This document shows, piece by piece, positions 29,926-40,368 of a stretch of 64,000 nt of DNA (positions are counted from its first letter, which is position 1; each line of letters opens with the position of its first letter). The translations under genes were made by a program, and so were the position numbers. Source of the stretch: an uncultured Cytophagales bacterium (GTDB lineage Bacteria; Bacteroidota; Bacteroidia; Cytophagales; Thermoflexibacteraceae); assembly GCA_938039675.1 (NCBI GenBank), contig CALHUI010000001.1, forward strand, positions 1 through 64,000, written 5' to 3'. The notes beneath the pieces were generated by a model that was given only the letters and a program-made list of their open reading frames with translations, did no database searches and had not been told where the DNA came from.

Positions 29926-30087
29926 TCATCGTTCAGCAAGTGTGCGAAAACCAAGCATGAAAATGAGCGAAGTAGTGCCAAGTGCCTGAAAACCAAAGTT
30001 CTCGGTCAGATAAGTCCCTACTAAGGGAGCAAAAATATGCGCTGCCGAATATGCCATCACATGCCTTTGTATGCGTTGCGATATCAG
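29926..30087 (-). pseudogene. Remnant of an MFS transporter C-terminus
   Basis: An open frame of 53 codons without a start, bounded by in-frame stops, reads in its middle HIFAPLVGTYLTENFGFQAL and ends FMLGFRTLAER. The sequence (polar helix end, small-residue helix, GTYLTENFGF loop, hydrophobic helix, short basic tail) strongly resembles two of the last membrane segments of drug/sugar MFS transporters of the MdtH/YdhP kind. Nothing of the other ten helices is left nearby. It lies between the DUF58 gene and the DUF5723 gene and is best read as a deletion relic. Homology is judged by eye. Confidence 0.5.
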
Positions 30088-34794: not shown

Positions 34795-36351
34795 ATGGAG
34801 ACGCTCACATCAATCCACGACCAACAAACAGCCGAATTGCTTGAAATTTTGGGTGTTAAGCCTTTGAACCCTGCTTATAGCACCGGCTTACACTGGGGCG
34901 GCAGACCCGGCGCACCAATCCGCGATATTTTTTCACCTATAGATGGACGGTTAATTGCATCTGTCAAAATAGCAGACAAGGGCGACTATGAACTAATTGT
35001 AGAAAAAGCACACGAAGTCTTCAAAATATGGCAGCGAGTTCCTGCTCCCAAACGCGGAGAGATTGTGCGCCAAATAGGCATGGCACTGCGCGAGTATAAG
35101 GAGCCGCTGGGCAGGTTAGTAACGCTCGAGGTGGGTAAAATTTTGCAGGAAGGCTTGGGCGAAGTACAGGAAATGATTGACATCTGTGACTTTGCAGTAG
35201 GTCTTTCCCGTCAGTTGCACGGCCTCACCATGCACTCGGAACGCCCTGAGCATCGCATGTATGAGCAATGGCATCCGCTGGGCATTGTCGGTATTATCTC
35301 TGCCTTCAACTTCCCTGTGGCGGTTTGGTCATGGAATGCCATGATTGCAGCGGTTTGTGGCAATGTCTGCATTTGGAAACCTTCCGAAAAAACCCCGCTG
35401 ACAGCCATTGCCTGCCAACATATTATAGCTAACGTACTGAAAAACAACCACTTGCCCGAAGGTATTTTCAATTTGATTATCGGCGGTGCAGAAGTTGGTG
35501 AGCTGCTCTCTCACGACACCCGCATTCCGCTCATTTCTGCCACAGGCTCTACCCGAATGGGTAAAAAAGTCGCACAGGCTGTTGCGGCACGCCTCGGCAA
35601 ATCTATTTTGGAACTGGGCGGCAATAACGCCATCATCATCACGGAACATGCGCATTTGGATTTGGCCATCCGCGCCGTAGCTTTTGGTGCAGTAGGCACT
35701 TGCGGCCAGCGTTGCACTACTACCCGCCGCCTGATTGTGCATGAGGATGTATATGACGATGTGCGCGACCATCTGGTGCGTGTGTATCAAAACCTGACCA
35801 TCGGCAATCCGTTGGAGGCAGGCACACTCATAGGGCCGCTGATTGATGCCGATGCAGTGCGCAACTTCCTGCATGCACTTGAAAAAGTACAGGCAGAAGG
35901 CGGAAAACTGTTAGTTGGCGGCAAAGTGTTGTCTGAAATTGGCGCTAACTATGTAGCACCTGCCATTGTAGAAGCCCAAAATCATTATGAAATGGTACAG
36001 GAAGAAACCTTTGCGCCTATCTTGTACCTGATTAAATACTCAGGCGATGTGCAAAATGCCATTGACATGCAAAATGCCGTGAAGCAGGGGCTTTCTTCTG
36101 CCATCTTCACCGACCATTTGCGTCAGGCAGAAATATTCCTGAGCGCATGGGGTTCAGATTGCGGCATTGCCAACGTCAATATCGGCACTTCGGGGGCTGA
36201 AATCGGCGGTGCTTTTGGCGGCGAGAAAGAAACCGGCGGTGGCCGCGAATCGGGCTCGGATGCATGGAAAGCCTACATGCGCCGTCAAACAAACACCATC
36301 AACTTCTCATCCTCACTGCCACTGGCGCAAGGCATCAAATTTGATATCTAA
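34795..36351 (+). CDS. amaB: Aldehyde dehydrogenase of the ALDH7 family (L-piperidine-6-carboxylate/aminoadipate semialdehyde dehydrogenase)
   Basis: The 518-residue protein has the ALDH fold with NAD-binding ISATGSTRMGKKV, the catalytic glutamate in ILELGGNNA and the catalytic cysteine in AVGTCGQRCTTTRRL. The motif GQRCTTTRR and the C-terminal GGGRESGSDAWKAYMRRQTNTIN are characteristic of ALDH7 (antiquitin). Family members oxidise alpha-aminoadipate semialdehyde, which is in equilibrium with piperideine-6-carboxylate, in lysine breakdown. No other lysine catabolic gene lies next to it, so the pathway role is inferred from the family. It has its own terminator. Confidence 0.82.
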   Translation: METLTSIHDQQTAELLEILGVKPLNPAYSTGLHWGGRPGAPIRDIFSPIDGRLIASVKIADKGDYELIVEKAHEVFKIWQRVPAPKRGEIVRQIGMALREYKEPLGRLVTLEVGKILQEGLGEVQEMIDICDFAVGLSRQLHGLTMHSERPEHRMYEQWHPLGIVGIISAFNFPVAVWSWNAMIAAVCGNVCIWKPSEKTPLTAIACQHIIANVLKNNHLPEGIFNLIIGGAEVGELLSHDTRIPLISATGSTRMGKKVAQAVAARLGKSILELGGNNAIIITEHAHLDLAIRAVAFGAVGTCGQRCTTTRRLIVHEDVYDDVRDHLVRVYQNLTIGNPLEAGTLIGPLIDADAVRNFLHALEKVQAEGGKLLVGGKVLSEIGANYVAPAIVEAQNHYEMVQEETFAPILYLIKYSGDVQNAIDMQNAVKQGLSSAIFTDHLRQAEIFLSAWGSDCGIANVNIGTSGAEIGGAFGGEKETGGGRESGSDAWKAYMRRQTNTINFSSSLPLAQGIKFDI

Positions 36352-36375: not shown

Positions 36376-36418
36376 ATGAGCTATCCCAACTGCGCAGCGG
36401 GATAGCTCATCTTATTTT
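36376..36418 (+). terminator. Strong terminator of the ALDH7 gene
   Basis: ATGAGCTATCCC (36376-36387) and GGGATAGCTCAT (36399-36410) are exact inverse copies, followed by CTTATTTT. Confidence 0.8.
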
Positions 36419-36597
36419 ACAACGGCTTTATCGTGTAATATTTGCGGCGATTGAACAATATTTTTAAATTATCCGGCTATACTATCTGCTTTTATACAAA
36501 ATCGCAAGTCATTTACGAAAAACGATTTTTTGTAAAATGCTGAAAAACAGCTATTTAAACCTGCACGAACCTCTTATTGACAATTTTTCTAAGACAA

Positions 36598-38439
36598 ATG
36601 AACAAATACCGCTTGCATTATTTTTTTACTGCTTTTGCTTGCCTTTGCAGCCTCTGCCACAAAAGCCCAAAACTGCGTATTGGGCGACTGTCAGAATGGT
36701 TTTGGCAAATACGCCTATAAAGAAGGGCATGTTTATCTGGGAGAATTTAAAGGCGGTGAACTCAACGGCTACGGTATCTTCGTTTTTAACAACAAAGAAA
36801 CCTATCTCGGGCAGTTCAGCAATGGTCGCTATAACGGGTATGGTATCTATTTATACCAAAATAGTGATATGGAGCAGGGTATCTGGAATGACATTACCTT
36901 GGTTACTCCTACGCCAAACGATGCCGTCGGTTGTGTTTACGGCAATTGTACCGATGGTTTTGGCGTTTTACATATAACAATGGCGCACTCTACATCGGCA
37001 ATTTCAGGTATGAAAAACTGGACGGTAAAGGGTTATACATGTTTGCAGACGGGGAGATATATATCGGTATGTTCAGCGGCAACAAGTATCAGGGGCGTGG
37101 TACATTCCTCTACAAAGACGGCAAGATAGACGACGGCTATTGGAGCAACAATCAATTTACCAAAGACATGAGCGGCAGCACGGCAAGCGGCTGCGTTTAC
37201 GGAGATTGTGCCAACGGCTATGGCACTTATGTATTTGATGATGGCAGCCGTTATACAGGCTATTTCAGAAAAAACCTGTTACACGGCGAAGGTACTTACA
37301 CCACAGCCAAAGGCTAACGCTACACGGGCTCTTTTGCCAACGGAAAGTACAACGGATACGGCACATATTACTACAACGACGGGCGCGTACAACAAGGCAA
37401 CTGGTTAAACAACGTTTTTCAAGGCGAAGTAAAAGCAAAAATAACTAGCTGTATATCAGCAGATTGCATCAATGGAACCGGTACATACAATCCGAAGGGC
37501 ATAAATACGTAGGGCGATTTAAAAATGGCGAGTTGCATGGACAAGGCTCTTTCTTCTTTGCCAATGGTGATAAATATGTCGGAGAATTTGCCAAAAGCAA
37601 ATTCAATGGAATAGGCAGTTATACTTAGGCTTCGGGTAAAGTAGAAAGCGGCAGGTGGAGCAATAACCAATATTTGGGCACAAACGCATCCGCAGGGCAA
37701 ACCAACACCCAACCTGCGACCACCAACAGGGGCACACAAAGCGGCAGCACGACCCAAGAACGCCGTTTGGCACTGATTATAGGCAACAGCAACTACACTA
37801 ACGCAGGTGTCCTCGAAAATCCCGTTAATGATGCAAGAGACATGGAAATTGCCCTGAAAAATGCCAGATTTGATGTAATGAAGTATGAAAATCTGGGTCG
37901 GGAAGACATGAAGCGCGCCATAGACCGGTTTAGGGCACGCCTGAGCAAGTACGATGTCGGGTTGTTTTTCTTTGCCGGACACGGACTGCAAGTGCGCAGC
38001 AATAACTATTTGTTCCCTTGCACTGCCGCCATTGTTTCGGAAAAAGACGTTGAATACGCATGTGTGGAAGCTGGTCGGATACTTGCCAAAGTAGAGGCGG
38101 TACGCAACAAAATCAATATTGTAGTGCTGGATGCGTGCCGCAACAATCCCTTTGAGCGCTCATGAAGTTGCTCAGTAAACGGGAACGGCTTGGCAGCCAT
38201 CAGTGCACCTGTCGGCTCATTTATTGCGTATGCCACCGCCCCGGGTACAACAGCCTCCGACGGGCTCGGGCAACAATAGGCTTTACACCGAACAACTGCT
38301 CAAATTTATCCAAATGCCCGGGCTAAAAAATTGAGGATATATTCAAGCGAGTACGCATCAACGTAATCAAACTTTTGGGGGCGAACAAACGCCATGGGAA
38401 GCCTCTTCTCTGATTGGCGATTTTTATTTCAAGAAATAA
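36598..38439 (+). pseudogene. Decayed MORN-repeat protein with C-terminal caspase-like (peptidase C14) domain
   Basis: Read in pieces over three frames, this stretch encodes one ancestral protein of about 610 residues. It runs from a signal peptide (LLLLLAFAASATKA) through many MORN repeats (for example YLGEFKGGELNGYGIF) to a caspase-like domain with ALIIGNSNYTNAGVLENPVND. That domain has the catalytic His in FFFAGHGLQV, the catalytic Cys in VVLDACRNNPF, and the end GDFYFKK. Four modules each open with a paired-cysteine motif such as GCVYGDCANGYG. The frame changes near 36620 (T-run), 36965, 37495, 38275, 38327 (A-run) and 38364, and stops lie in frame at 37315, 37626 and 38163. Neighbouring genes are intact, so this is a real pseudogene rather than poor sequence. 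Confidence 0.8.
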
Positions 38440-38546
38440 AAACCTGTTTTTTTGAGTAGCTTTGCGCCATTTCAATAACCGGTCGCAGCATGGATTTTCG
38501 CCGGGCGATTGGCTTAGAATTTACCTACTCGCAAAGTAAACAGCAA

Positions 38547-39887
38547 ATGAAAGAAGAACCCGGCGGGACGCTCCGCAAAGAAATTAATACCGTGCAGTTG
38601 TGGGCTATTGCCGTCGGGCTGGTCATTTCAGGAGAATATTTCGGGTGGAATTACGGCTGGGCAGTTTCGGGGACCATTGGGTTTCTGCTGGCAACGCTGC
38701 TGGTTACGCTGATGTATGTCAGCTTCATTTTCAGTTATACCGAGCTTACCTCGGCCATTCCGCAGGCAGGAGGCCCTTTTTCGTATGCCAAACGCGCATT
38801 CGGGTCACTTGGTGGCTTCTTGGCAGGTTTTGCTACATTAGTTGATTTTTTACTTGCGCCACCCGCAATTGCCTATGCTCTGGGCGGCTATGCCCATTTT
38901 CTCCACCCCGAAGTTCCCGTAGTACCAACAGCTATCGTCTCCTATGCCATTTTTATTGGCGTAAATTTATTGGGGATTAAAGAAGGAGCAAAGTTTTCAT
39001 TAGTAGTTACGCTGCTTTCCGTTGGCGAAATTTTGCTTTTTATGGGGCTGATTGTGCCGCACTTTGAGTGGCGTTCGTTTGCTGCACATAATCCGCAGCC
39101 GCTCAATGCCGGGCACATATTTGCAGGCGTGCCCTATGCTATTTGGTTCTTTGTTGCCATAGAAGGCGTTGCAATGGTTGCCGAAGAAGTGAAAAACCCG
39201 CAAAAAACCATTGCGCGGGGCTATCTGCTCAGCATCGGTACTTTGGTGTTGCTGGCCATAGGAATTATGGTGCTCAGCGGCGGCGTAGGCGACTGGCGGC
39301 AACTGATTGATATAGACCACCCACTCCCCGAAACGCTTGCCATGGCACTGGGACACAACAGTGTTTGGTCAAAAATTTTCACAGGATTGGGGCTTTTCGG
39401 ACTCATTGCATCTTTTCACTGCAATACCATCAGCTATTCGCGACAAATCTATGCCATGGCACGCGAAGGATTTTTACCGCAGTTTCTCACCCGCCTAAAC
39501 AAGCATCAGACCCCTCATTGGGCACTGATTGCCGGAGGTAGCGTAGGATTTATCGCTATTTTTTCAGGAAAAACAGACCAAATTATTACACTTTCGGTAC
39601 TGGGTGCAGTAGTTATGTACATGTTCAGCATGGCCAGTCTGCTTGTGCTCCGCATAAAAGAGCCGAACTTACATCGACCGTTCTGCGTACCGATGTACCC
39701 TTACCTTCCTTGGACAGCCCTCATCCTCACGGTATTGTGCGCCGTGGCAATCGTTTATTATAACCTACTCATCAGCCTGATTTTTATCGGGTTAATGCTG
39801 CTGTCTTTGATTTGGTTTGCGTTGGTCAGAAACCGCCTGACCGTGCTTGCAGTTGATGAGCACGCCAAGCAAACCACTCAGGCATAA
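38547..39887 (+). CDS. APC-superfamily permease, ethanolamine permease type
   Basis: From the ATG at 38547 the protein has 446 residues and about twelve membrane segments. The first ones (VQLWAIAVGLVISGEYFGWN, then GFLLATLLVTLMYVSFIFSY and SAIPQAGGPFSYAKRAFG) match the ethanolamine permease branch of the amino acid-polyamine-organocation superfamily. It should import ethanolamine or a small amine or amino acid across the inner membrane. No ethanolamine ammonia-lyase or eut gene is in the window, so the substrate is inferred from similarity alone. An in-frame ATG 57 bases upstream adds a non-homologous extension. Confidence 0.75.
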   Translation: MKEEPGGTLRKEINTVQLWAIAVGLVISGEYFGWNYGWAVSGTIGFLLATLLVTLMYVSFIFSYTELTSAIPQAGGPFSYAKRAFGSLGGFLAGFATLVDFLLAPPAIAYALGGYAHFLHPEVPVVPTAIVSYAIFIGVNLLGIKEGAKFSLVVTLLSVGEILLFMGLIVPHFEWRSFAAHNPQPLNAGHIFAGVPYAIWFFVAIEGVAMVAEEVKNPQKTIARGYLLSIGTLVLLAIGIMVLSGGVGDWRQLIDIDHPLPETLAMALGHNSVWSKIFTGLGLFGLIASFHCNTISYSRQIYAMAREGFLPQFLTRLNKHQTPHWALIAGGSVGFIAIFSGKTDQIITLSVLGAVVMYMFSMASLLVLRIKEPNLHRPFCVPMYPYLPWTALILTVLCAVAIVYYNLLISLIFIGLMLLSLIWFALVRNRLTVLAVDEHAKQTTQA

Positions 39888-40368
39888 GCAGCGTGCATGA
39901 TGCAATGCAGTTATTATATTATCTTAACAACACTTTCATCAATGCCACCCTTGTGCTCAAAATAGTTGGTGGTGATGAGAAGGCACTTTTTCAAAAACAG
40001 GCTTAGGCTGACAATGAATGTTGATGCGCAAAATATTGTCTGTTTTAACAGCAATATCATTGGTCTTTTTGTTTGCCGCTCATTTGTCGCTAAAACTAAT
40101 GCCGCTTGTTATAACTTAGGTTGAGTAAAAGTGAGTAGAAGCACTTTTTTAAGCGAAAGTTATTGATAATTTTTGTACGTGCAGCCTGCTTATCTGTCAG
40201 CAGCATGATATCGGGCAATAGGTCTCTGTATTATTTTTCCATCATAAACCGATACATGGCTTACGCATCAGCAACAGACCCGCTGAGTTAATTAATTACT
40301 AATACCGATAATTCATCCATAAATTTTTTTGCGCCATACCGATGGTTAATTATTATTACAGGCTGTTG
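39888..40368. other. Gene-free stretch between permease and xseA
   Basis: Nothing in these 481 bases is a convincing gene. A minus-strand frame near 40110-40240 reads DLLPDIMLLTDKQAARTKII but lacks a start and is short. No xseB-like small-subunit gene, tRNA or strong hairpin was found. Confidence 0.35.

What the first reader, a model, noticed from the sequence alone, without database searches (positions are those of the whole stretch)
36598..38439. Decayed MORN-repeat/caspase gene with both catalytic motifs still readable
Joined across frames the stretch gives a signal peptide, MORN repeats in four modules each opened by a paired-cysteine motif (such as GCVYGDCANGYG), and a C14 caspase domain with AGHG and DACR intact. 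There are six frame changes and three in-frame stops (37315, 37626, 38163). Two shifts fall in a T-run and an A-run, so slippage is possible at those points, but the other four and the stops point to real decay. A surface MORN-caspase lost in this strain could mark a recently abandoned death, defence or processing system.
Basis: partly seen in the sequence, partly recalled or inferred. Interest (0 to 1): 0.6.

Follow-up and report, generated by a model that had tools for sequence, protein, structure and literature searches.

The report
Broken MORN-caspase gene, intact in relative
This bacterium carries the wreck of a gene for an exported caspase-like protease with MORN repeats; a sister species still has the whole gene in the same place, so this is a recent loss of a known type of protein rather than a new system.

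Summary
Confirmed. Window 36598-38439 is a pseudogene of a MORN-repeat/C14-caspase protein with six frame changes and three in-frame stops. A congener (G002) has the intact 614-aa orthologue between the same neighbours, at 94% DNA identity; a family-level relative has an intact 618-aa protein of the same layout, 60% identical. All six length differences in the gene shift the frame; the bodies of the two flanking genes have none. Of 34 G002 ORFs matched in the window, 31 run through, so sequencing noise is unlikely. From the ATG at 36598 only 40 residues can be translated.
The intact protein has a signal-peptide-like start, four modules (a C-x4-C cap plus two MORN repeats each) and a complete caspase domain with His and Cys in place. 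MORN|metacaspase fusions are already in print (PMC4933709, passage seen).
One addition: in G002 a second caspase gene lies just beyond the neighbouring permease, and the window keeps only its two ends. G002 has five caspase-domain matches; the window's genome has one in an unbroken frame. A role in death or defence is not shown.

The parts
36598..38439 (+). Pseudogene of a MORN-repeat/C14-caspase protein
   Evidence: six frame changes, three stops, intact orthologue in G002
36598..36717 (+). What can still be translated from the ATG (40 aa)
36602..36970 (+). Piece in frame 2: signal-peptide-like end, first module, cap of the second module
   Evidence: 36620-36970 matches residues 8-124 of the intact protein
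36958..37491 (+). Piece in frame 1: rest of the second module, third module, cap of the fourth; stop at 37315
   Evidence: residues 121-298, one TAA
37476..38276 (+). Piece in frame 0: fourth module and most of the caspase domain; stops at 37626 and 38163
   Evidence: residues 295-561, one TGA and one TAG
37974..37985 (+). AGHG motif (catalytic His)
38130..38141 (+). DACR motif (catalytic Cys)
34795..36351 (+). Intact upstream neighbour, aldehyde dehydrogenase
   Evidence: Pfam PF00171, continuous against G002
38547..39887 (+). Intact downstream neighbour, amino-acid permease (446 aa from the start homologous to that of G002)
   Evidence: Pfam PF13520, continuous against G002
39960..40299 (-). 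Remnants of both ends of a second caspase gene that is whole in G002

Best explanation
The stretch is a recently inactivated gene. Its intact form, shown in a congener, encodes a protein with a signal-peptide-like start, four modules that each open with a C-x4-C cap and hold two MORN repeats, a short linker, and a complete C14 caspase (metacaspase-like) domain with its His and Cys. Most likely (inferred, about even odds in detail) the intact protein is a stand-alone periplasmic or secreted Arg/Lys-type cysteine protease whose MORN array binds a partner or surface and places or controls the protease, with the cysteine pairs closed as disulfides in the export compartment. In the window's lineage the gene lost its function after the split from G002 and is decaying by frameshifts and stops. 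Shown: decay, orthology, synteny, domain content, retained catalytic motifs. Inferred: export, activity, specificity, disulfides, role. The confidence given is for the decay and the protein type.
For: Six frame changes and three stops. Intact 614-aa orthologue in the same place in G002; DNA identity 94.1% in the gene against 95.8% and 94.6% in the two flanking ORFs. Intact 618-aa homologue of the same layout in G009. Full PF00656 (positions 1-233, 140.4 bits) and MORN (111.8 bits) in the intact protein. Amino-acid-changing differences are raised against the flanks: pN 0.033 against 0.012 and 0.015 at similar pS of 0.14-0.15 (Fisher p = 0.0003 on rounded counts). Of 34 matched G002 ORFs 31 are continuous in the window. 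The window's own caspase piece matches the MALT1 paracaspase among solved structures (E = 3.3e-13), and the repeats of the intact relative match MORN1 proteins (E = 4.1e-25).
Against: The lean of amino-acid changes to the window side (22 window-derived, 3 G002-derived, 17 unresolved) is not significantly different from that in the two flanking genes (18 to 7, 4 unresolved; Fisher p = 0.29), so that asymmetry alone does not show relaxed selection on this gene; the lesions do. The higher pN could partly reflect a naturally faster gene. No reads, transcripts or second strain were available. The structure prediction of a whole relative was poor (mean pLDDT 45.8), so disulfides and domain packing are untested.
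Confidence: 0.9

Rival explanations
1. Sequencing or assembly error: the gene is whole in the organism and the frame changes are read errors.
For: Two of the six changes lie in homopolymer runs (36621-36627, 38325-38330); no reads could be inspected.
Against: 31 of 34 matched G002 ORFs run through in the same window; nine lesions in one gene, three of them substitutions to stop codons of three kinds; raised pN in the same gene.
Confidence: 0.04
2. Recoding: the gene is expressed through programmed frameshifts and stop read-through.
For: The catalytic motifs and all four cysteine pairs are still readable.
Against: Six shifts and three different stops would be needed; two relatives have plain open frames; the lesions are absent in G002.
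Confidence: 0.01
3. Partial function: the 163-aa ORF at 37674-38165, with most of the p20 part, is still made as a truncated protein, for example a decoy.
For: It has a TTG start and matches PF00656 at 88 bits.
Against: It lacks the export signal and the last 100 or so positions of the domain (profile 1-130 of 233); the caspase half has the highest dN/dS of the parts tested (0.37).
Confidence: 0.04

Closest known systems
MORN|metacaspase fusion proteins of bacteria (Baltic Sea metagenomes, PMC4933709)
   Same: Same domain order, one to four Pfam MORN hits before a metacaspase; one such protein is counted in the metatranscriptome column (table passage seen).
   Different: Here the gene is broken. 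The intact relatives have eight MORN repeats by my pattern in four C-x4-C-capped modules; the passages I saw do not mention such caps.
Prokaryotic metacaspases / orthocaspases (Peptidase_C14, PF00656; surveyed in PMC3501461)
   Same: Complete domain with the His-Cys pair in the intact orthologue.
   Different: Activity and preference for Arg/Lys untested; the window copy cannot make the domain. The term MORN has no occurrence in the main text of that survey (find result).
EACC1-associated caspases (NF047832; two-gene conflict system of PMC7159879)
   Same: Caspase domain of the same superfamily (52 bits).
   Different: Below the cut-off of 140 bits; caspase at the C-terminus rather than the N-terminus (passage); neighbours are a dehydrogenase and a permease.
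MORN repeat proteins of known structure (MORN1, 6t4r and others)
   Same: Repeat sequence (E = 4.1e-25 with the intact family relative).
   Different: Bacterial, signal-peptide-like start, array interrupted by cysteine caps, fused to a caspase.

Membership tests
Peptidase C14 / metacaspase | Significant match to the C14 domain | tested here: met
   Window piece 88 bits; intact orthologue 140.4 bits over positions 1-233
Peptidase C14 / metacaspase | Catalytic His and Cys | tested here: met
   AGHG at 37974 and DACR at 38130; H463 and C515 shared by G002 and G009. That these are the catalytic residues is recalled knowledge of the family.
Peptidase C14 / metacaspase | Complete domain in one frame in the window copy | tested here: not met
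   Stop at 38163 and later frame changes; profile positions 1-130 of 233 in the open frame
Peptidase C14 / metacaspase | Cleavage after Arg/Lys | not testable with these tools
   Needs a biochemical assay
MORN repeat protein | MORN repeats over the curated cut-off | tested here: met
   Window pieces 37.1 and 54.6 bits, cut-off 22.5; intact 111.8 bits
EACC1-caspase conflict system | Score above the NCBIfam cut-off | tested here: not met
   52.3 of 140 bits
EACC1-caspase conflict system | Adjacent EACC1 gene | tested here: not met
   Immediate neighbours are an aldehyde dehydrogenase and an amino-acid permease by Pfam
Known anti-phage defence system | Match to a PADLOC system with its partner genes | tested here: inconclusive
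   Generic 'caspase' model only, 34.7 bits, partial; flanking genes not scanned with PADLOC

The most novel reading that the evidence does not exclude
The MORN-caspase and the caspase-hydrolase that flank one permease in G002 were parts of one sensor/protease system, and the window's species has recently shed that system along with most of its caspase repertoire (five caspase-domain matches in G002, one in an unbroken frame here). The species pair would then be a natural before-and-after experiment for what bacterial caspases are for.
Probability: 0.12. Interest if true: 0.55.

Novelty: new member of a known kind. Interest (0 to 1): 0.28.

Why it matters
On its own it is an ordinary gene loss. 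Its value is as a matched pair: two closely related species (94-96% DNA identity in the three genes compared), one with five caspase-domain genes and one with a single unbroken one, in a phylum where the roles of caspase homologues are open. It also draws attention to MORN arrays that open with paired cysteines, seen here in six MORN-caspases and in two MORN proteins without a visible caspase motif.

Tried and rejected
Plasmid collection, distant blastn with 36400-38500: no match. Rfam at gathering scores and ARAGORN on the window: nothing. The one named-genome scan used two patterns, both from the MORN part; of 65 stretches with a pattern, two encoded a relative: a Bernardetiaceae MAG contig with the intact 618-aa protein, and a clostridial MORN protein in which I saw no caspase motif. 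AlphaFold on that 618-aa protein with a two-row alignment: mean pLDDT 45.8, pTM 0.27; strands followed by mixed helices and strands agree with MORN plus caspase, but the model is too poor for a fold search and none was run. An alignment of separate window pieces with the relative misplaced the repeats and was not used. The polarised amino-acid count did not separate the gene from its flanks. Programmed frameshifting, a changed code and assembly error were considered and rejected (see rivals). The defence label rests only on weak PADLOC and NCBIfam matches for this gene; the second caspase of G002 matches the PADLOC model better (132.4 bits). Literature: 'MORN repeat' with caspase and bacteria listed 8 papers, none on bacterial MORN-caspases by title or abstract start; 'MORN repeat' with Bacteroidetes listed one unrelated paper; MORN with metacaspase and signal peptide listed two unrelated papers. 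Those searches missed PMC4933709, so they are not exhaustive. A first alignment script used the wrong orientation of L024 and its gap list was discarded (redone); an early script failed on a missing file name; another took only one strand of the loci, so its output for reverse-strand loci is meaningless (redone).

Full report
What is there. The stretch was translated in the three forward frames. In order the pieces are: a start with signal-peptide character; MORN repeats with four C-x4-C motifs (nt 36674, 36932, 37192, 37450); a caspase piece with AGHG at 37974 and DACR at 38130. Pfam finds MORN (37.1 and 54.6 bits) and Peptidase_C14 (88 bits) on separate open pieces; the whole-genome search scores the caspase at 97.8 bits with one TGA inside. 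From the ATG at 36598 only 40 residues can be translated.

Is the decay real? A DNA search of the genus (4 genomes, own included) found G002 with 92% identity over the whole 3,001-base query at one place. Its gene is open: 614 codons from the ATG. Identity is 94.1% in the gene, 95.8% in the dehydrogenase, 94.6% in the permease ORF and 90% in the two intergenic gaps. As a control for read noise, 45 non-overlapping G002 ORFs of at least 120 aa from 59 kb were compared with the window by tblastn, keeping hits over 70% identity. Eleven had no such hit (some may lie beyond the window's edge or be gains in G002). Of the 34 with a hit, 31 run through: 29 over their whole length or all but one or two residues, one cut by the window's edge, one with a single stop. 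Three are broken: the MORN-caspase, a second caspase gene, and an MFS transporter gene, the last two as remnants.

Selection. Counts of the Nei-Gojobori kind against G002: gene pN 0.033, pS 0.147, dN/dS 0.21 (MORN half 0.13, caspase half 0.37); dehydrogenase pN 0.012, dN/dS 0.08; permease pN 0.015, dN/dS 0.09. The share of amino-acid-changing differences is higher than in the two flanks together (Fisher p = 0.0003 on rounded counts), though a naturally faster gene would also give this. With G009 as outgroup 22 changes fall on the window side, 3 on the G002 side, 17 unresolved. Against my reading: with G003 as outgroup the two flanking genes lean the same way (18 to 7, 4 unresolved), and the difference is not significant (p = 0.29). 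Since most differences are still of the kind selection allows, the gene was probably under constraint for most of the time since the split and was lost late (inference).

The intact protein. G002 (614 aa) and G009 (618 aa) are 60% identical, with a full C14 domain (140.4 and 135.7 bits) and MORN repeats. By a simple pattern the G002 protein has eight MORN repeats, two per module, and C-x4-C pairs starting at 26, 112, 199 and 285, a period of about 86 residues. H463 and C515 are shared. The start reads as a signal peptide without a lipobox (my reading; no predictor was run). Closest by sequence among solved structures are MORN1 proteins for the repeats and the MALT1 paracaspase for the window's own caspase piece. 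The structure prediction was poor and is not used.

Distribution. In 390 genomes of the order (own included) 56 had a match at E <= 1e-30 to the intact protein; among the matches listed, only those of G002 and G009 run over the full length, and most others lie in the caspase part. I picked ten of these loci for Pfam, two of them because their starts looked like MORN: DUF7477 in three, TPR in two, a glucodextranase-B-like domain in one, no partner in two, MORN in two (G120, G154). Among all loci fetched by then, 5 of 57 distinct ORFs with caspase motifs carry MORN repeats, and all five carry C-x4-C caps (G002, G009, G120, G154, G426). A sixth MORN-caspase with a cap (G098) has DVC in place of DAC (by eye). 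The loci were fetched by similarity and are no random sample. The MORN half finds 9 of 380 genomes of the order at E <= 1e-15 and 3 of 395 of the phylum at E <= 1e-20, own included in both. Of seven further MORN loci read, caps are in three (L154, L156, L157) and not in four (L093, L096, L155, L158). G001 and G003, also of the genus, gave no match to the intact protein at E <= 1e-30; in G003 the dehydrogenase and permease ORFs are about 320 bases apart with no ORF of 90 aa between.

A second caspase next door. Between permease and exonuclease VII, G002 has a 1,094-aa ORF with a caspase domain (90 bits) and a hydrolase-like C-terminal part (DUF7379, LCAT); it matches the PADLOC caspase model at 132.4 bits. 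The window keeps its ends at 40299-40153 (with three stops) and 40076-39960 and lacks about 2.9 kb between. A PF00656 search of 13 genomes of the family gives G002 five matches, G001 four, G003 one, the window's genome two (this pseudogene and a protein in an unbroken frame on contig 24, 694 aa from its ATG), and the nine others three to nine each; some rows are weak and one genome is 62% complete. DNA of two further G002 caspase loci shows no match over the caspase gene in the window's genome (in one search only 40 of 120 candidates were scored). Part of the difference may be gain in G002.

How it works, as far as can be said. Shown: the gene cannot make its protein. Inferred for the intact form: an exported, stand-alone, metacaspase-type protease placed or controlled by its MORN array, with cysteine caps that may close as disulfides. 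Target and role are open. Death and defence are possible, but little here favours them: the neighbours differ between the two loci compared (dehydrogenase and permease in G002; a methyltransferase and an FtsX-type permease in G009), the PADLOC match is weak, and there is no EACC1 partner.

Known or new. MORN|metacaspase architectures are listed in a table of PMC4933709 (passage seen). PMC3501461 surveys prokaryotic caspase homologues; the term MORN has no occurrence in its main text (find result). PMC7159879 describes EACC1-caspase conflict systems (passages seen). Three full-text searches brought no paper on Bacteroidetes MORN-caspases as such, but they also missed PMC4933709. The finding is a dead member of a known kind.

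Organism. The family relative with an intact copy is labelled a Bernardetiaceae MAG, a family of Cytophagales. By kinship the window is from the same family-level group; the species was not identified.

Noticed in passing
window 36490-36596, and many places in G000 and G002: A dispersed intergenic element of about 108 bp (starts TTATACAAAA, ends with a CCTGACAGG/CCTGTCAGG hairpin and GTATA). A covariance model built from 27 copies of G000 and G002 gives 91 matches in the window's genome, 135 in G002, 2 in G003, 0 in G001, with 150 candidates scored per genome. In 26 of 29 copies read (mechanical ORF calls) it lies 3' of a same-strand ORF, as a terminator or 3'-UTR element would. The window copy scores 64 bits against 118.9 for its G002 counterpart, and about 40 bases beside it are absent relative to G002, just before the pseudogene's ATG.
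   Followed up: partly
window 39960-40299: Remnants of both ends of a second caspase gene (caspase plus hydrolase-like part) that is whole in G002.
   Followed up: yes
window 29929-30072: Remnant (residues 347-398) of an MFS transporter gene that is whole in G002.
   Followed up: partly
L069, L072, L095, L154, L156, L157: A C-x-x-G-[DN]-C-x-x-G-x-G cap opens MORN arrays in several Bacteroidota proteins, in front of caspases and in two proteins with no visible caspase motif.
   Followed up: partly
L127:1944-6171: In G002, a 630-aa caspase ORF beside a 125-aa ORF and a 595-aa ORF that looks like an ATPase (my reading of the translations; only the caspase was tested). It may be a defence locus; no match over the caspase gene in the window's genome.
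   Followed up: no
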